Shown in pieces: positions 49,931-56,795 of a stretch of 64,000 nt of DNA. Location of the stretch: the NCBI RefSeq assembly GCF_039545455.1, contig NZ_CP154468.1:744001-808000 (forward strand). The letters run 5' to 3'. Below the pieces are notes generated by a model. It saw only the letters and a list, made by a program, of their open reading frames with translations, ran no database searches and was not told where the DNA came from. The DNA is from Brucella sp. BE17 (GTDB lineage Bacteria > Pseudomonadota > Alphaproteobacteria > Rhizobiales > Rhizobiaceae). Position numbers and translations under genes: made by a program. Positions within the stretch are counted from its first letter, which is position 1. Each line of letters opens with the position of its first letter.

Positions 49931-50386
49931 ATGAAAATTGCAGTAGCGGGCGACAGCGCCGGTGAAGGCCTCTCAAAAATTCTGGCCGATTATCTCAAGG
50001 ATCGTTTTGAGGTTTCTGAAATCTCGCACACGGACGCCGGACCGGATGCATTTTATGCCAACCTTTCCGATCGGGTTGCCTCCGCCGTTCTTGATGGCAC
50101 CTATGACCGCGCTATTCTGGTTTGCGGCACCGGTATCGGCGTTTGCATTGCTGCCAACAAGGTTCCCGGCATTCGCGCTGCATTGACCCATGATACCTAT
50201 TCGGCAGAACGTGCAGCACTGTCTAACAATGCCCAGATCATCACCATGGGCGCACGCGTGATCGGTTCGGAAGTCGCCAAGACAATTGCTGATGCCTTCC
50301 TCGCGCGGACATTTGATGAAAAGGGCCGTTCGACTGGCAATGTAGACGCCATTAACGCAGTCGATGCTAAATATAACGCACGTTAA
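49931..50386 (+). CDS. RpiB/LacAB-family sugar-phosphate isomerase (DerI/EryI-like)
   Basis: A 151-residue aldose-ketose isomerase of the RpiB/LacAB fold. It has the catalytic-cysteine block [24 protein letters not shown] (residues ~61-84; Cys64 region) and [14 protein letters not shown] (~98-111). Residues 1-12 read [12 protein letters not shown] where classical RpiB has SDHAG; this matches my memory of the Brucella erythritol-pathway isomerase EryI (D-erythrulose-4-phosphate isomerase) more closely than ribose-5-phosphate isomerase. No other erythritol gene is adjacent. AAGGAG stands 7-8 nt before the ATG. It is a single-gene unit flanked by hairpins. Confidence 0.82.
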
Positions 50387-50408
50387 TTCGTTTCCGTACA
50401 TGTTTCCT

Positions 50409-50442
50409 GCACACGGGCGCAGCAGCGTCTACGCTCGTGTGC
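50409..50442 (+). terminator. Hairpin after the isomerase gene
   Basis: GCACACGGGCG (50409-50419) pairs with CGCTCGTGTGC (50432-50442), one G-T wobble, 12-nt loop. It begins 23 bp after the stop codon. No T-run; weaker terminator candidate. Confidence 0.5.
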
Positions 50443-50547
50443 ATGTCTGGCTTTCAAACAATTGCCGGAAATTCTTTCAAAACCGGATTGAACCAAATTG
50501 CATGAGCCGCGTTTATTTAACGTTCGTTAACCATAACGGAGGCTGTC

Positions 50548-50628
50548 ATGCTCTGGTACTATAAATTGGAAAGCGCTTTTGCCGCCACATTCGTCATCGG
50601 CGCGGCTCTCACCTTCTGGTGGATGTAA
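50548..50628 (+). CDS. 26-residue membrane peptide, unknown
   Basis: A 26-codon frame encoding one hydrophobic helix, MLWYYKLESAFAATFVIGAA then LTFWWM, with aromatic residues at both ends as in interface-anchored single-span peptides. A strong ribosome site (GGAGG) sits 6 nt upstream of the ATG. A second tiny membrane gene follows 64 bp on, and a terminator closes the pair at 50836-50871. Shape resembles small accessory subunits of membrane complexes (for example oxidase subunits), but it does not match CydX, CydH or CcoQ as I remember them. Not visible to length-limited gene callers. Confidence 0.6.
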   Translation: MLWYYKLESAFAATFVIGAALTFWWM

Positions 50629-50692
50629 AGCGGATCGTTCCGCTTCGTTTTCCGACGCATTTATTTACAATCTAAAACGGAAAGGGTGCACA

Positions 50693-50785
50693 ATGGAGTG
50701 GCTCCAATGGGCAGGCTATGCCCTGATCGCTTTCATGCCTGCAATTATTCTCGGCCTCACCTTTGTTGAAAAAGGTCGGATTTGA
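50693..50785 (+). CDS. 30-residue membrane peptide, unknown
   Basis: A 30-codon frame: N-terminal MEWLQWAGYALIAFMPAI, then ILGLTFVEKGRI. It has a single hydrophobic helix from about residue 5 to 25 and a charged C-terminal end (EKGRI), which predicts an N-out or N-in single-span topology with the basic end in the cytoplasm. GGAAAGGG lies 6-7 nt before the ATG. It is the second of two tiny membrane-protein genes on the same strand and is followed after ~50 bp by an intrinsic terminator, which supports real transcription. No family is recognised. Confidence 0.62.
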   Translation: MEWLQWAGYALIAFMPAIILGLTFVEKGRI

Positions 50786-50835
50786 CAGGCAATGAGCACA
50801 TCAATCAAATGCGAATACATTAGAATTAAATAGCG

Positions 50836-50871
50836 CGCTTCGGTCTGATATGAAAGGGCCGAAGCGTTTTT
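50836..50871 (+). terminator. Terminator after the two tiny membrane genes
   Basis: CGCTTCGG (50836-50843) and CCGAAGCG (50859-50866) form an 8-bp stem with a 15-nt loop followed by TTTTT. Good intrinsic terminator on the plus strand. Between it and the next gene (51030) lies an AT-rich stretch that presumably holds that gene's promoter. Confidence 0.8.
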
Positions 50872-51029
50872 GAGTATAATTGATATTTTTAAAAAAACCA
50901 CTTTTTCCTCTCCCGGTGTTCTTCATGCTTTGTGCTGGCATTTTTGTAATTTCGGATGACTTTCGTGTATGCAACGCATATGCACGAATAAACGAAATCA
51001 AGAATTTTCTGGCATGAAAGGATATCATC

Positions 51030-52061
51030 ATGAGCGAAGCCATCCTGCTAACGGTCGATCATCTCTTTGAACTTGCCAGCGATATCTTCCGCAAAGCCGG
51101 GTTGAGTGAAGCCCATGCCCAATCGGTTGCCCGTACAATCGTTGCGGCAGAACGGGACGGCTGCAAATCGCATGGCGTATACCGCATCGAGGGATGCCTG
51201 CGCACCATTAAGAGCGGCAAGGTCGTGCCCGACGCCGTGCCGATGTTGACAGTGGATGAAAGCGCGGTCGTGCGCGTCGACGCCAAGGGTGGCTTTGCCA
51301 ATTTGGCCTTTGAAACCGGAACACCGGCCCTTGTGGAACGTACCCGCCAACTTGGGCTCGCCGCCCTCGTCATCAATGATTGCACGCATTTTGCAGCGTT
51401 GTGGCCCGAGGTTGAAGTGCTGGCGCAATCAGGCCTGTCTGCCATTGCCATGTGCCCAAGCTATGCCACGGTCGCGCCTGCAGGCGGCACAAAACCGCTG
51501 CTCGGCACCAATCCTTTTGCGTTTGGCTGGCCGCGCCCCGGTGAAAATCCCTATGTCTTCGATTTTGCAACCAGCGTTGCAGCGCGCGGCGAACTCGAAC
51601 TCTACCGTCGTGCTGGAAAGCCTCTGCCGGAAGGCTGGGCGATCGACGCGGATGGCAACCCCACCACCGATCCTGAAGCAGCGCTCGAAGGCGCGATGCT
51701 TCCATTCGGCGGCCATAAGGGCTCAGCCATTTCAACGATGATCGAACTGCTGGCTGGTTCTATGATCGGCGATTTCAACAGTCCCGAAGCGCTCGAATTT
51801 TTGGGAACCACCACCATTGCGCCCCGCCATGGCGAGTTGATCATCGCCTTCGATCCCGCGCGTATGGCGGGCGGACGTGGCAATCCACTCCAGCATGGCG
51901 AAGCATTGATCGAAGCCATTGTTGGACAGGGTGCTCGCCTTCCCTCACAGCGTCGGTTCGCGGCGCGCAGCGTATCACTTGCCAAAGGCATTTCGCTGAA
52001 CCAAGCCGAAATGTCCCAACTAGACATGCTGCGCGAAAAGGGACTGGATGCAGTCGCCTAA
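51030..52061 (+). CDS. Ldh-family NAD(P)-dependent oxidoreductase
   Basis: A 343-residue member of the malate/L-lactate dehydrogenase-like (Ldh2/MdhB) family, which uses a Rossmann-unrelated fold. Substrates in the family include malate, sulfolactate, ureidoglycolate, and delta1-piperideine-2-carboxylate. Seen blocks: VARTIVAAERDGCKSHGVYRIEG (with the SHG segment, ~30-52), INDCTHFAALWPEVE (catalytic-His region, ~115), GTNPFAFGWPRP (~160) and GAMLPFGGHKGSAISTMIELLAG (~225). Ribosome site AAAGGA, 7 nt upstream. It converges with the NAGGN operon (2-bp gap at 52064), and is not obviously part of it. Related enzymes act in trans-4-hydroxyproline or ketimine metabolism. Confidence 0.85.
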   Translation: MSEAILLTVDHLFELASDIFRKAGLSEAHAQSVARTIVAAERDGCKSHGVYRIEGCLRTIKSGKVVPDAVPMLTVDESAVVRVDAKGGFANLAFETGTPALVERTRQLGLAALVINDCTHFAALWPEVEVLAQSGLSAIAMCPSYATVAPAGGTKPLLGTNPFAFGWPRPGENPYVFDFATSVAARGELELYRRAGKPLPEGWAIDADGNPTTDPEAALEGAMLPFGGHKGSAISTMIELLAGSMIGDFNSPEALEFLGTTTIAPRHGELIIAFDPARMAGGRGNPLQHGEALIEAIVGQGARLPSQRRFAARSVSLAKGISLNQAEMSQLDMLREKGLDAVA

Positions 52062-52063
52062 GC

Positions 52064-53224
52064 CTAATCGGTCGGCCCGTCCCCGGGCCGCAAAACCTGT
52101 TCGGCCTGTGTCGACTTTTGGTGCGTGAAACCCTTGAGACCAGGTGCGGTTTCTTCCGCGTCGCGTTTGATCTCGACGGGGCTCATCGCATAATGAACGG
52201 CAAGAGATGCAATGGAAGTCAGCGCGCTTGAGTGAATGCGCTCATAGCCGTGCGATGCATCGACACCGAAGGCCAGAAGCGCTGTGCGCACATCATGTCC
52301 CGCCACGACCGCCGATGCGGCATCGGAGCGATAATAGCGAAAAACATCCTTCTGCACCGGAATATCGTTTTCCAGGCAGAGATCGAACAGTTTCTTTGTC
52401 AGGTGATAATCGAACGGGCCGGTCTGATCGGCCATGGCTAGGGTGACGCCAAACTCCGACGAATTTTGCCCGTCAGCACTGGTGCCATTATCGATGGCGA
52501 CCAGCGAGGCCATGTCAGGTACCACAACCGCCGAGGCACCAACCCCCACTTCCTCACCGATCGTAAACAACCAGTAGGTATCGACCGGCGTTTGAGCATT
52601 CACCCTCTGCATGGCTTCAAGCGCTGCAAGCATAATGGCAACGCCCGCCTTGTCGTCGAGATGGCGCGAGATGATGAAGCCATTATCGATGAATTCAGGT
52701 GTCGGATCGACCGCGACGATATCACCGACATCAATGCCAAGCTGGACAAGATCATCCTTGTTGCGGGCAAGCGCATCAACGCGCAGTTCGACGTGCCGCC
52801 ATCCAACGGGCTGTGTATCGACCTCATCATTGAAGGTGTGGCCGGATGCTTTCAATGGCAGGATCGAGCCTCGATAAATGCCCCTGGACGAGAAAATAGA
52901 CACGCGTGCGCCCTCAGCAAAACGCGCCGACCAGTTGCCAATCGAAACCAGTTCAAGCCGCCCGTTGTCTTTGAGATATTTGACCTGCGCGCCCAATGTG
53001 TCGACATGCGAGACGATGCCGCGCGCCGGGCGCTCGGAGAGGCCCGATCGTCGTGCGCGGATCGCACCGCGCCGCGTCAGCATCACATCAAGGCCAAGCG
53101 CTTCGAGCTCATGGGCAACATAGTGCACCACTTCATCGGTGAAGCCTGTCGGGCTTGGTATCGCAAGCAGGGCTTTAAGCCGCTCGATGAGATAATCCTG
53201 ATTAATGGAAATCAAACCATGCAT
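52064..53224 (-). CDS. M42-family hydrolase of the NAGGN osmoprotectant system
   Basis: A 386-residue binuclear-metal aminopeptidase family member matching the third gene of the N-acetylglutaminylglutamine amide (NAGGN) trio. Metal-ligand blocks: GIVSHVDTLGAQVKYL (~69-84), RHLDDKAGVAIMLAALEAM (~191-209), the EEVGVG catalytic/metal Glu pair (~224-229), and the His in DASHGYERIH near 335. Its role in the system is not established; turnover or processing of the dipeptide osmolyte is assumed. It follows the synthetase gene on the minus strand with 9 bp between, so one operon. Confidence 0.88.
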   Translation of the reverse strand: MHGLISINQDYLIERLKALLAIPSPTGFTDEVVHYVAHELEALGLDVMLTRRGAIRARRSGLSERPARGIVSHVDTLGAQVKYLKDNGRLELVSIGNWSARFAEGARVSIFSSRGIYRGSILPLKASGHTFNDEVDTQPVGWRHVELRVDALARNKDDLVQLGIDVGDIVAVDPTPEFIDNGFIISRHLDDKAGVAIMLAALEAMQRVNAQTPVDTYWLFTIGEEVGVGASAVVVPDMASLVAIDNGTSADGQNSSEFGVTLAMADQTGPFDYHLTKKLFDLCLENDIPVQKDVFRYYRSDAASAVVAGHDVRTALLAFGVDASHGYERIHSSALTSIASLAVHYAMSPVEIKRDAEETAPGLKGFTHQKSTQAEQVLRPGDGPTD

Positions 53225-53233
53225 GATCCAGCC

Positions 53234-54994
53234 CTACCCCGCATATGAACCCAGTTGCGGAAACAAGCATTCAACGAAGCGCGCCGCAGTCGGGCGAGGT
53301 TCGTGATTGGCAAGGCCCGGGCGCTCATTGGCTTCCACAAAGATATAGTCCGGCTCTTCCGGGTCTTTGACCATGAAATCGATGCCGACCACCGGAATAT
53401 GGATAGCGCGTGCCGCCTTGCACGCCGCCTCGACCAAAGTTTCATGCACACTCGCCGTCACATCGTGGATGGTGCCGCCGGTGTGAAGATTGGCAGCCTT
53501 GCGCACCGTAATTTCACGGTGGTCGGCAAGCACGTCTTCAAGCGCCAATCCCTGCCCCTCAAGGCATCGTCTGGTTTCATCGTCGATGGGTATGCGGCTT
53601 TCGCCGCCCGTTGCTGCCAGACGGCGGCGCGATTGCCGTTCGATCAGCTTGCGGATTGTTGTACGCCCATCTCCGACCACACGCGGCGGACGGCGGACGG
53701 CGGCAGCCACCAGCTTGTAATCGATGATCACCAGCCGCAGGTCCTCGCCGTCAAAGCAGGCTTCCAGAAGCACTCGGTCGCAAACCGTTTTCGCACGTTT
53801 GATTGCGGCGCGCAGATCCTTCATCGTGGTGATGCCCACAGAAATTCCCCGCCCCTGCTCGCCACGTGCCGGTTTCACCACCAGTTTGCCGTGGCTTTCG
53901 AGAAAATCCTGCAAGGCACTTTCGTCCGCATCGGCGGAAATCTGTTGCGGTACGACGAGACCAGCCTTTTCCACGACGCGACGCGTCACCGCCTTGTCAT
54001 CGCAGATCGACATGGCAACACCTGAAGTCATTTCCGACAGGCTTTCACGGCAATGTACAGAACGTCCGGCATAGGAAAGACGAAAAAAACCGCCTTCAGC
54101 GTCGGTCACGTCTACCTGCACGCCACGGCGCATGGCTTCGTCTACGATTATGCGGGCATAGGGATTAAGTTCATCGACCGATTGCAATGGTGAGGCGAAA
54201 AACTTTTCATTGATCGCGTTCTTACATTTGATCGCGAATAGCGGAACGCGGCGAAATTTCAGCTTTTCATAAAGCCTGATGGCATTGTCATTGTCATGCA
54301 GCACCGACAGATCGACATGGCTCAAACCCCGTGCCTGAAAATGCTCGGCAAGTTTGCGCACCAGCTTTTCGCCGATACCGGGCTGGCGGGCTTGCGGGTG
54401 AACCGCCAGACACCAGAGTGAGGCACCTTGATCGGCGTCGCCGAACAGGCGCCGATGATTAAGCCCGGTCACTGTGCCGATCACTTCGCCGGTGGCGTCG
54501 TCCTGTGCCACGAAATAAGTGACGGCGCGATTGTCGCGATCCTCCGAGAAGAAATCGGGCCGCAACTGCACCATACCGCAGGCGGCATAGACACCGTTAA
54601 TGCCTTCGGCATCCGCTTCAGAAGCGGCGCGGCGAATGGTTACACCGCGTATGCGCCGACCGCCGGGGCGATAGGTTGCAAGTTCCAGCCGATAGGTGTG
54701 TGAGGGATCGAGGAATATTTCGTGCGGCGCCATCGACAAGAGCACATGCGGGTCGCTGGCATAGAACAAAATATCCCGGCTTGCGGGGGCTTCGGCACGC
54801 AACGCCTCGATAATTGCTTCATTGCTTTCAAAAGTCTGCGCAAATAGTAGCCGCCCCCAACCGCAATCGAGCGCCACATTGGTTTTGCGCTCGATATTGT
54901 CCTGCTCCTGATGAAAGCCTGCGCTTTCGGGGTTACGCAGGCGCGTCAGACGGTGCGAAAAGGCCCTCGTACCCTTGGTCTTTTGCCGCGTCAT
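53234..54994 (-). CDS. ngg: N-acetylglutaminylglutamine synthetase (GNAT + ATP-grasp fusion)
   Basis: A 586-residue fused enzyme for NAGGN, an osmolyte made by rhizobia and pseudomonads under high salt. The N-terminal half is a GNAT acetyltransferase (~110-280: YFVAQDDATGEVIGTVTGLNH, CLAVHPQARQPGIGEKLVRKL, the acetyl-CoA loop). The C-terminal half (~320-575) is an ATP-grasp ligase with GKLVVKPARGEQGRGISVGI, FDGEDLRLVIIDYKLV, the Asp near GIDFMVKDP, and VEANERPGLANHEP. The ATG at 54994 has GAGG at 6 nt; an open frame extends to 55210 but overlaps asnO. The amidotransferase ends 25 bp upstream. Confidence 0.93.
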   Translation of the reverse strand: MTRQKTKGTRAFSHRLTRLRNPESAGFHQEQDNIERKTNVALDCGWGRLLFAQTFESNEAIIEALRAEAPASRDILFYASDPHVLLSMAPHEIFLDPSHTYRLELATYRPGGRRIRGVTIRRAASEADAEGINGVYAACGMVQLRPDFFSEDRDNRAVTYFVAQDDATGEVIGTVTGLNHRRLFGDADQGASLWCLAVHPQARQPGIGEKLVRKLAEHFQARGLSHVDLSVLHDNDNAIRLYEKLKFRRVPLFAIKCKNAINEKFFASPLQSVDELNPYARIIVDEAMRRGVQVDVTDAEGGFFRLSYAGRSVHCRESLSEMTSGVAMSICDDKAVTRRVVEKAGLVVPQQISADADESALQDFLESHGKLVVKPARGEQGRGISVGITTMKDLRAAIKRAKTVCDRVLLEACFDGEDLRLVIIDYKLVAAAVRRPPRVVGDGRTTIRKLIERQSRRRLAATGGESRIPIDDETRRCLEGQGLALEDVLADHREITVRKAANLHTGGTIHDVTASVHETLVEAACKAARAIHIPVVGIDFMVKDPEEPDYIFVEANERPGLANHEPRPTAARFVECLFPQLGSYAG

Positions 54995-55019
54995 ATTTAC
55001 CTCACCGCGTTTATGCATG

Positions 55020-56795
55020 TCATGCCTCCTGAGTCTGGAGCCACATTTCAAGAAGGCCCGCCTGCCACAATTCCGACCCGCGCAGCGGCGTGATATGATC
55101 GGAGGGATTAGCGAACAATTGATCCAGATAATCGCGCTGAAAAAGACCGCGCTCACGCGCTTTTTGCGAGGAGAGCGCATCGCGCAGCATATCGAGATAA
55201 GGCCCGGCAATATATTTGAGCTGCGGCACCGGGAAATAGCCCTTTTTGCGATCGATGACTTCGCTTGGAATGATTTTTCGCGCTACATCCTTCAATATGC
55301 CTTTGCCGCCATTACGCAGCTTTTCTTCCGGCGGAATGCGTGCGGCAAGTTCGACCAGTTCGTGATCAAGGAATGGCACACGTGCCTCCAGCCCCCATGC
55401 CATGGTCATGTTGTCGACACGCTTGACGGGATCATCCACCAGCATGACATTGGTATCAAGCCGCAAGGCGCGGTCTACGGGTGTATCTGCGCCGTCTTGC
55501 AACAGATAATCTTCGAGCAGCGCCTGACTGTAATCGCGCTCGGGCATCCATTGCGGAGCAAGCTGCGTTGCCAGCACTTGGTGTGAACGGTCGCGGAAAC
55601 CCCTCGCGTAATCGCCGACGACGTCGTTGGAATCGACCAGCGGTGGATACCAGTGATAGCCCGCAAAGACCTCATCTGCGCCCTGACCCGACTGCACCAC
55701 CTTGATATGCTTCGAAACCTCTTTCGATAAAAGATAGAAACCGACATTGTCATAGGAGACCATCGGTTCGGACATCGCGGCGATGGTGCCGGGCAGCGCA
55801 TCCATAAGGTCGGATGACGGCACGAAAATCTTGTGATGCTCGGTGCCGTAATGTTTTGCGATCAAGTCGGAATAGACGAATTCGTCGCCTTTCTCGCCAT
55901 TGGCCTCTTCGAAGCCGACAGAAAAACTCATGAGACCAGCCTGCCCCGCTTCGGCCAGAAGGCCAACGATGAGGCTCGAATCGACACCACCCGATAAAAG
56001 CACACCCACCGGCACATCGGCAATCATCCGGCGCTTGACTGCAACGCGCAGCATGTCGAGAAGCTGGTCCTGCCAGTCCTCACGGCTCATCGCGCCATCC
56101 CCCGCAAGTCGTTGATACCGCGCCTGCCAATAGATATTATCCCTGAAGCTGCCATTGGCCTCATAGATGCGTATGGTTGCGGGTGGCAGTTTGCGCACAC
56201 CATTATATATAGTGCGCGGCGGAGGCACGACGGCGTGGAAACTCATGTAATTATGCAGTGCCGCACGGTCTATGGACGTATCCACACCGCCCGCCTTGAT
56301 CAGCGCCGGCAGCGCCGAGGCAAAGCGCAAAGCGCCATTCGTATCAGCCAGATAAAGCGGCTTGATACCGAAACGGTCGCGTACGAGCACAAGCCTGCCC
56401 GTTTCGCGTTCATGAAGGGCAAAGGCGAACATGCCGAGGAAACGCTTTACACAGTCTTCGCCCCACGCATGCCATGCCTTGAGAATGACTTCTGTGTCGC
56501 CATCGGAAAAGAACTTATAGCCCTTGGTCTCAAGTTCAGCGCGCAACTCACGGAAATTATAGATGCAGCCGTTGAACACCAGTGTCAGGCCAAGATCGGA
56601 ATCAATCATCGGCTGCTGTGATTTTTCGGAAAGATCAAGGATTCTCAATCGTCGGTGTCCGAAACCAATATTGTCTCTTATCACTATCCCAGATGCGTCC
56701 GGCCCACGGGGGCTGAGCACATCTGCCATTTTCGAGACTGCCGCAACCGACGGCGAACCGCCATCGAACCTGACTTCTCCGCAAATTCCACACAT
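55020..56795 (-). CDS. asnO: N-acetylglutaminylglutamine amidotransferase (asparagine-synthase-like)
   Basis: A 591-residue class II glutamine amidotransferase that amidates the dipeptide. The start is fixed by MCGICGE: the nucleophile Cys2 must follow the removed Met, so upstream codons to 56822 are excluded. The GATase domain (~1-200) includes GHRRLRILDLS and FNGCIYNF; the synthase domain has the PP-loop SGGVDSSLIVGLLAEAG (~260-276), SVGFEEANGEKGDEF, and LEARVPFLDHELVELAARIP near 480. First gene of the asnO-ngg-M42 operon. Its leader carries a terminator-like hairpin 35-70 bp upstream, suggesting attenuation, see findings. Confidence 0.94.
   Translation of the reverse strand: MCGICGEVRFDGGSPSVAAVSKMADVLSPRGPDASGIVIRDNIGFGHRRLRILDLSEKSQQPMIDSDLGLTLVFNGCIYNFRELRAELETKGYKFFSDGDTEVILKAWHAWGEDCVKRFLGMFAFALHERETGRLVLVRDRFGIKPLYLADTNGALRFASALPALIKAGGVDTSIDRAALHNYMSFHAVVPPPRTIYNGVRKLPPATIRIYEANGSFRDNIYWQARYQRLAGDGAMSREDWQDQLLDMLRVAVKRRMIADVPVGVLLSGGVDSSLIVGLLAEAGQAGLMSFSVGFEEANGEKGDEFVYSDLIAKHYGTEHHKIFVPSSDLMDALPGTIAAMSEPMVSYDNVGFYLLSKEVSKHIKVVQSGQGADEVFAGYHWYPPLVDSNDVVGDYARGFRDRSHQVLATQLAPQWMPERDYSQALLEDYLLQDGADTPVDRALRLDTNVMLVDDPVKRVDNMTMAWGLEARVPFLDHELVELAARIPPEEKLRNGGKGILKDVARKIIPSEVIDRKKGYFPVPQLKYIAGPYLDMLRDALSSQKARERGLFQRDYLDQLFANPSDHITPLRGSELWQAGLLEMWLQTQEA

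What the first reader, a model, noticed from the sequence alone, without database searches (positions are those of the whole stretch)
50548..50871. Two tiny single-span membrane-protein genes closed by a terminator
A 643-bp stretch that looks empty at ordinary ORF cut-offs contains two consecutive plus-strand frames of 26 and 30 codons. Each has a good ribosome site and encodes one hydrophobic helix with aromatic ends, and together they are followed by an 8-bp stem plus T5 terminator. Seen directly: the frames, Shine-Dalgarno sequences and terminator. Inference: they encode small membrane peptides that may be subunits or regulators of a larger complex, like CydX-type or stress-induced proteins. 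Neither matches a family I know.
Basis: partly seen in the sequence, partly recalled or inferred. Interest (0 to 1): 0.72.

Follow-up and report, generated by a model that had tools for sequence, protein, structure and literature searches.

The report
Stress-linked tiny membrane protein gene
A gene of only 26 codons, too short for ordinary gene finding, encodes a one-helix membrane protein kept across much of the Brucella/Ochrobactrum group behind what looks like a general-stress promoter with a cell-cycle regulator site on top; a second, 30-codon gene joins it in only some members.

Summary
In detail: two small frames (50548-50628, 26 aa; 50693-50785, 30 aa) with ribosome sites and a strong terminator.

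Frame 1 is a real gene. An intact homologue (26 or 29 aa) with the same leader was found in 26 of 35 genomes of the genus. It is under purifying selection (pN/pS 0.18). No credible relative appeared in the genomes sampled outside the genus.

Its most conserved part is the promoter. All 26 carry TGAAC-N16-CGTT, ending 32-37 nt before the ATG, one base from the rhizobial EcfG (general stress response) consensus GGAAC-N16-CGTT. 25 of 26 also carry a CtrA-type box (TTAA-N7-TTAAC, at most one mismatch) over the expected transcription start. The sequence differing only by T to G occurs at 11 sites in 10 of the 35 genomes: 3 at dps (a known top EcfG target) and 8 beside an HWE kinase gene.

Frame 2 was found in 8 genomes of one clade, with weaker support (pN/pS 0.62).

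Most likely this is a stress-induced, CtrA-gated single-span inner-membrane peptide that binds a membrane partner. Expression, translation and partner are untested.

The parts
50489..50498 (+). EcfG-like -35 element TGAAC plus conserved CAAAT
   Evidence: TGAAC-N16-CGTT upstream of all 26 homologues; CAAAT 92% identical between clades against about 31% for the 22 nt upstream
50510..50513 (+). EcfG-like -10 element CGTT, exactly 16 nt after TGAAC
   Evidence: consensus GGAAC-N16-CGTT in PMC3892343 (passage)
50516..50531 (+). CtrA-type full box (TTAA-N7-TTAAC, one mismatch here) overlapping the predicted transcription start
   Evidence: at most 1 mismatch in 25 of 26 genes, 0.005 expected per gene by background rate
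50527..50534 (+). CtrA half-site TTAACCAT
   Evidence: exact TTAACCAT in 23 of 26 genes, 22 of them at this half-site; half-site given in PMC3692519 (passage)
50538..50542 (+). Shine-Dalgarno GGAGG of frame 1
   Evidence: SD-like sequence starting 10-12 nt before ATG in 26 of 26
50548..50628 (+). Frame 1: 26-aa single-span membrane protein gene
   Evidence: homologues in 26 of 35 congeneric genomes; pN/pS 0.18
50682..50686 (+). Ribosome site AAGGG of frame 2 (weaker)
   Evidence: sequence; stronger sites in relatives
50693..50785 (+). Frame 2: 30-aa single-span membrane protein gene
   Evidence: found at 8 of 26 frame-1 loci, 48-64 nt downstream of frame 1; pN/pS 0.62
50835..50871 (+). Intrinsic terminator, 12-bp stem, 9-nt loop, T run

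Best explanation
Frame 1 is a free-standing gene for a 26-aa single-span inner-membrane protein of the Brucella/Ochrobactrum genus. Shown by comparison: conserved reading frame, start, ribosome site, purifying selection, and a promoter footprint TGAAC-N16-CGTT followed by a CtrA-type box. Inferred: the sigma factor EcfG (RpoE1), released from NepR by PhyR in the general stress response, starts transcription about 30 nt before the ATG. CtrA bound over the start site would repress it, so the peptide would be made when stress is on and CtrA activity is low. In the window and seven relatives a second small membrane peptide would be made from the same transcript. The peptide inserts with its short N-terminal end (invariant Y4, K/R6, E8) probably cytoplasmic and its hydrophobic stretch (invariant F15) in the membrane. 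It most likely acts by binding one inner-membrane protein, plausibly of envelope growth or division given the CtrA site, and adjusting its activity during stress. The partner is unknown.
For: Found in 26 of 35 genomes. pN/pS 0.18, p = 1e-17. The strict element TTGAACCAAAT-N20-40-TTAACCAT occurs once in each of 17 of 35 genomes, in all 17 just before this gene, reversed control 0. Between clades, CAAAT and the -35, -10 and second half-site blocks are 92-100% identical (first half-site 76%), while upstream flank, 3' flank and third codon positions are 25-31% identical (-35, -10 and second half-site were anchors of that count, CAAAT was not). The Rhizobium etli EcfG1 motif is GGAAC-N16-CGTT (PMC3892343 passage), and the window genome has that motif 119 nt before its phyR. 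Of 51 single-mismatch relatives of TGAACCAAAT-N11-CGTT in the genus, 11 are exactly GGAACCAAAT-N11-CGTT: 3 lie before dps and 8 past the end of an HWE-type kinase gene. dps is a top EcfG target in B. abortus (PMC12354254 passage). The CtrA box has at most 1 mismatch in 25 of 26 genes.
Against: The -35 is TGAAC, not GGAAC, in all 26 genes, so another ECF factor or weak EcfG use is possible. GGAAC-N16-CGTT as such is not enriched in the window genome (43 sites against 82 for the reversed pattern). The window genome itself has no GGAACCAAAT-N11-CGTT site, and since that search required CAAAT it cannot show that EcfG promoters in general carry it. The CtrA box lies where activation is not expected, and 15 of 26 boxes, the window's included, have one mismatch and one has two. 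No transcript or peptide data were seen. Nine of 35 genomes lack the gene. A test for a conserved helix face was negative (p = 0.65 over residues 2-26), so the partner-binding step has no direct support. The CtrA-based lean to envelope or division is inference only.
Confidence: 0.6

Rival explanations
1. A small subunit or chaperone of one fixed membrane complex, like CydX of the cytochrome bd oxidase: always made with its partner and needed for its activity.
For: Size, single span, aromatic-rich N-terminus; a small protein of this kind exists in the genus (CydX in Brucella abortus, cited in PMC10117765, passage).
Against: Neighbours differ by clade: rpiB and Ldh_2; a probable autotransporter and Ldh_2; RcnB and DUF808; others (some names recalled). 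It has its own conserved promoter and was not found in 9 of 35 genomes.
Confidence: 0.15
2. A membrane-acting type I toxin (TisB/Hok class, recalled) controlled by an antisense RNA.
For: Short hydrophobic peptide, stress-type promoter, own terminator in the window.
Against: One clear copy per genome, strong purifying selection; the 30 nt 3' of the frame are not conserved between clades (25% identity); no Rfam match at E up to 0.1 overlaps the gene in the six loci scanned.
Confidence: 0.08
3. The conserved thing is a regulatory RNA or a leader peptide, and the frame is incidental or only its translation matters.
For: The promoter and leader are more conserved than the peptide.
Against: 68 synonymous against 36 nonsynonymous changes in nine pairs; downstream genes vary; 51 nt around the start (50520-50570) do not fold better than shuffles (z = 0.65).
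Confidence: 0.07
4. The promoter is served by another ECF sigma factor, or TTAACCAT by a regulator other than CtrA; the peptide is a small stress protein all the same.
For: Invariant T in place of G at the first -35 position in 26 of 26.
Against: Same spacing and same CAAAT as the 11 GGAACCAAAT sites at dps and the HWE kinase gene.
Confidence: 0.2

Closest known systems
Small stress-induced single-span membrane proteins of E. coli (recalled; Hemm et al. 2010 seen only as a reference in PMC10117765)
   Same: 20-30 aa, one helix, stress-type control, easily missed by annotation
   Different: No sequence relation tested; EcfG-like and CtrA-type control is alphaproteobacterial
EcfG (RpoE1) general stress regulon: dps, phyR, stress-locus ncRNA such as R. 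etli ReC64 (PMC3892343 passages)
   Same: Element spacing N16 and CGTT; GAACCAAAT...CGTT shared with dps and kinase-side sites
   Different: First -35 base T instead of G in all 26 genes; CtrA-type box added
CydX of cytochrome bd oxidase (Brucella abortus; PMC10117765 passage)
   Same: Tiny single-span protein in the same genus
   Different: No fixed operon partner; own promoter
SidA/DidA division inhibitors of Caulobacter (recalled, no call)
   Same: SidA is a similar-size inner-membrane peptide under stress control
   Different: Different control; no sequence relation tested

Membership tests
EcfG (general stress response) regulon | GGAAC-N16-CGTT promoter | tested here: inconclusive
   TGAAC-N16-CGTT in 26 of 26: spacing and -10 met, first -35 base not
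EcfG (general stress response) regulon | Loss of transcript without EcfG | not testable with these tools
   no expression data in the tools
CtrA regulon | TTAA-N7-TTAAC full site or TTAACCAT half-site in the promoter | tested here: met
   full site exact in 10, one mismatch in 15, two in 1 of 26; TTAACCAT exact in 23 of 26; the window's own box has one mismatch and an exact half-site
CtrA regulon | CtrA bound in vivo | not testable with these tools
   Francis 2017 ChIP-seq seen only as a reference
CydX-type subunit | Encoded with cytochrome bd oxidase genes | tested here: not met
   window neighbours rpiB and Ldh_2, metE beyond; neighbours differ by clade and those named from Pfam or by eye are no oxidase genes, though many flanking frames were not identified
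CydX-type subunit | Match to a curated family model | tested here: not met
   no Pfam family at E up to 1 for the window's two peptides; one sub-threshold LHC match (E 0.09) for a homologue; NCBIfam not searched
Type I toxin-antitoxin | Overlapping or adjacent antisense RNA | tested here: inconclusive
   no Rfam match over the gene in six loci, 3' region not conserved; transcripts not testable
Protein-coding gene | Conserved frame with synonymous excess | tested here: met
   frame 1 pN/pS 0.18, p = 1e-17; frame 2 pN/pS 0.62, p = 0.02

The most novel reading that the evidence does not exclude
The gene is an AND-NOT gate in one promoter: EcfG turns it on in stress, CtrA keeps it off in the wrong cell-cycle phase. 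Its 26-aa product directly brakes or retunes an inner-membrane growth or division complex, which would make it a missing link by which these bacteria stop growing under stress.
Probability: 0.2. Interest if true: 0.78.

Novelty: new member of a known kind. Interest (0 to 1): 0.52.

Why it matters
It adds a selection-maintained gene, present in 26 of 35 genomes of a genus, that ordinary ORF cut-offs miss. It gives a testable link between the general stress response and the CtrA cell-cycle network in the Brucella/Ochrobactrum group, which existing RNA-seq and ChIP-seq data could confirm or refute. The footprint also points to an element (GAACCAAAT-N11-CGTT) shared with dps and with a site beside an HWE kinase gene.

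Tried and rejected
Sigma-70 promoter: the scan of 50387-51029 found none on the + strand, one on the - strand, 1.0 expected; no -10 at 17 nt is conserved (read by eye). Profile search outside the genus: 12 of 397 order genomes matched, one being the window's own, the best two others at E 6e-4 and 7e-4 inside open frames of about 480 codons; 16 of 394 family genomes matched, five being genuine genus members, one (G217) a genus genome with a match inside a longer frame, and ten from other genera, best E 0.0025 inside a 535-codon frame, a few inside short frames. I judged these chance and did not look at them one by one. Plasmid and phage tblastn, one peptide each time: no match, one at E 9, two at E 10. 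Conserved helix face at 100 degrees: p = 0.25 to 0.66 over five residue ranges. Known sRNA: no Rfam match over the gene in the six loci scanned. rpiB as partner: in 15 of the 80 public rpiB loci (those nearest the genus) no frame resembling frame 1 or 2 lies within 900 nt behind rpiB. One search translated minus-strand loci on the wrong strand; corrected.

Exact element, looser form: TGAACCAAAT-N11-CGTT with at most one mismatch gave 76 matches in 35 genomes (25 exact, 51 with one mismatch) against 20 for the reversed control; 23 of the 25 exact ones are at this gene, two (G206, G211) are elsewhere. The enrichment (11 of 51, p = 3e-8) counts orthologous sites of related genomes several times and is overstated; it amounts to two kinds of place.

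Full report
What is there. The 643 bp between rpiB (49931-50386, LacAB_rpiB) and an Ldh_2-family dehydrogenase (51030-52061) hold two small plus-strand frames, 50548-50628 (26 aa) and 50693-50785 (30 aa), and a terminator at 50835-50871. The terminator folds at -20.1 kcal/mol, z = -4.0. Neither peptide matches Pfam at E up to 1.

Frame 1 is a gene. A search with the window peptide found 14 of 35 genomes of the genus at E up to 0.1. A profile of 8 distinct sequences gave matches in 30 of 35 at E up to 0.5, of which 25 are intact short frames behind the same leader. The other five (G217, G016, G204, G119, G205) lack the leader and are not counted. A search for the promoter element added a 26th, G210. 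So 26 of 35 have it and 9 do not (G016, G119, G201, G204, G205, G214, G215, G217, G223). Two of the 35 genomes (G205, G218) are under 75% complete. Each of the 26 has one clear copy; G202, G226 and G227 have a second, partial match at E 0.24-0.48 that I did not examine. Invariant residues in 23 distinct rows are M1, Y4, E8 and F15. Codon positions differ in the order 3 > 1 > 2 (0.62, 0.42, 0.30; 23 distinct sequences of the first 25 genes). In nine non-overlapping pairs (18 of 26 genomes) there are 68 synonymous and 36 nonsynonymous changes, pN/pS 0.18, p = 1e-17. The pairs were chosen by similarity, not from a tree, and the proportions are uncorrected.

Outside the genus nothing credible was found in samples of 397 order genomes and 394 family genomes (the two samples may overlap), nor in plasmids or phages. 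For so short a protein this is weak evidence of absence.

Frame 2 was found behind frame 1 in 8 of the 26 loci, all with the MLWYY-type peptide, by a search for hydrophobic frames within 400 nt. It is intact in each. pN/pS is 0.53 pooled over all pairs and 0.62, p = 0.02, in four non-overlapping pairs. It is probably coding, but the pair is not obligate.

The promoter. All 26 genes have TGAAC, 16 nt, CGTT, then 32-37 nt to the ATG. CAAAT follows TGAAC in nearly all. Between clades CAAAT is 92% and the -35, -10 and second half-site blocks 94-100% identical, the first half-site 76%, while the 22 nt upstream (31%), the 11-nt spacer (40%), the 3' flank (25%) and third codon positions (31%) are not conserved. 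The -35, -10 and second half-site served as anchors in that count, so their figures are partly by construction; CAAAT was not an anchor. The strict pattern TTGAACCAAAT-N20-40-TTAACCAT occurs exactly once in each of 17 of 35 genomes, in all 17 at this gene, with 0 for the reversed control.

Why EcfG. Rhizobium etli EcfG1 uses GGAAC-N16-CGTT (PMC3892343, passage). The window genome has one NepR and carries GGAACTTTTTTCACCGACGCCCGTT 119 nt before the start of phyR (PhyR families in Pfam). That pattern as such is not enriched genome-wide over its reversed control (43 against 82), so it alone proves little. Better is the neighbourhood of the element found here. TGAACCAAAT-N11-CGTT with up to one mismatch gives 76 sites in the 35 genomes against 20 for the reversed control. 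Of the 51 with one mismatch, 11, in 10 genomes, change only the first T to G. Three of the 11 precede dps (G213, G218, G219; Ferritin family in all three). The other eight lie past the 3' end of a histidine kinase gene, read in all eight; three of the eight were run against Pfam and are HWE kinases. In the window genome the start of such a kinase frame lies about 0.5 kb after phyR on the same strand, but the window genome has no GGAACCAAAT site of this form. dps is one of the three most EcfG-activated genes in B. abortus (PMC12354254, passage), and R. etli has an EcfG-driven ncRNA downstream of phyR-tcrY (PMC3892343, passage). The gene thus shares an element with likely EcfG promoters, except that its first base is T in all 26. 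Since the search itself required CAAAT, it does not show that EcfG promoters in general carry it.

Why CtrA. PMC3692519 (passage) gives TTAAN7TTAAC as full and TTAACCAT as half-site; PMC11527210 (passage) uses TTAA-N7-TTAA and TTAACCAT for Agrobacterium. Within 50 nt of the ATG, 10 of 26 genes have an exact full site, 15 one mismatch, 1 two. The background rate predicts 0.005 sites of at most one mismatch per gene. TTAACCAT is exact in 23 of 26. The box covers the place where transcription from CGTT should start, which suggests repression; this is inference.

Neighbours. Clades differ: Ldh_2 and DapA-like genes; an autotransporter upstream; RcnB and DUF808; dinB and a metal-binding protein gene (several names are recalled from sequence, and many flanking frames were not identified). 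The gene therefore looks free-standing, not a subunit gene of a fixed operon.

Most likely working. Stress activates PhyR, frees EcfG, and the gene is read unless CtrA occupies the start. The product sits in the inner membrane and acts on a partner. Only the sequence part is shown; a test for a conserved helix face was negative.

Papers. Passages found by term were seen in PMC4433202, PMC10746212, PMC11527210, PMC3692519, PMC3892343, PMC6599016, PMC10117765, PMC12772402, PMC4438053 and PMC12354254; none was read in full, and other papers only as listings. Searches for EcfG with small membrane proteins, for CtrA with EcfG and small proteins, and for Ochrobactrum with Brucella and sORF returned no paper; Brucella with small proteins and ribosome profiling listed six, none with Brucella in its title. 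The library is open-licence only, so this is weak evidence of novelty.

Noticed in passing
L135:1501-1593 (genome G204): A 30-codon frame MHWYFIIEGTILAAFLTVTAALVWKNLRRH followed by a terminator-like hairpin and T run (by eye) resembles frame 1 at the N-terminus but lacks the promoter element; it follows another frame. Possibly a distant paralogue.
   Followed up: partly
L250-L253, L255, L257, L260, L261: A GGAACCAAAT-N11-CGTT site faces the 3' end of an HWE kinase gene in eight of 35 genomes; possibly the promoter of a stress-locus ncRNA like R. etli ReC64.
   Followed up: partly
L261:865-1028: Rfam Brucella sRNA CI153 match, 40 bits, below its gathering score of 137.
   Followed up: no
L154:406-532: Rfam ar14 sRNA above its gathering score.
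   Followed up: no
window 52064-55210, minus strand: M42-type peptidase next to a GNAT/ATP-grasp protein; looks like an osmolyte (NAGGN-type, recalled) gene pair.
   Followed up: partly
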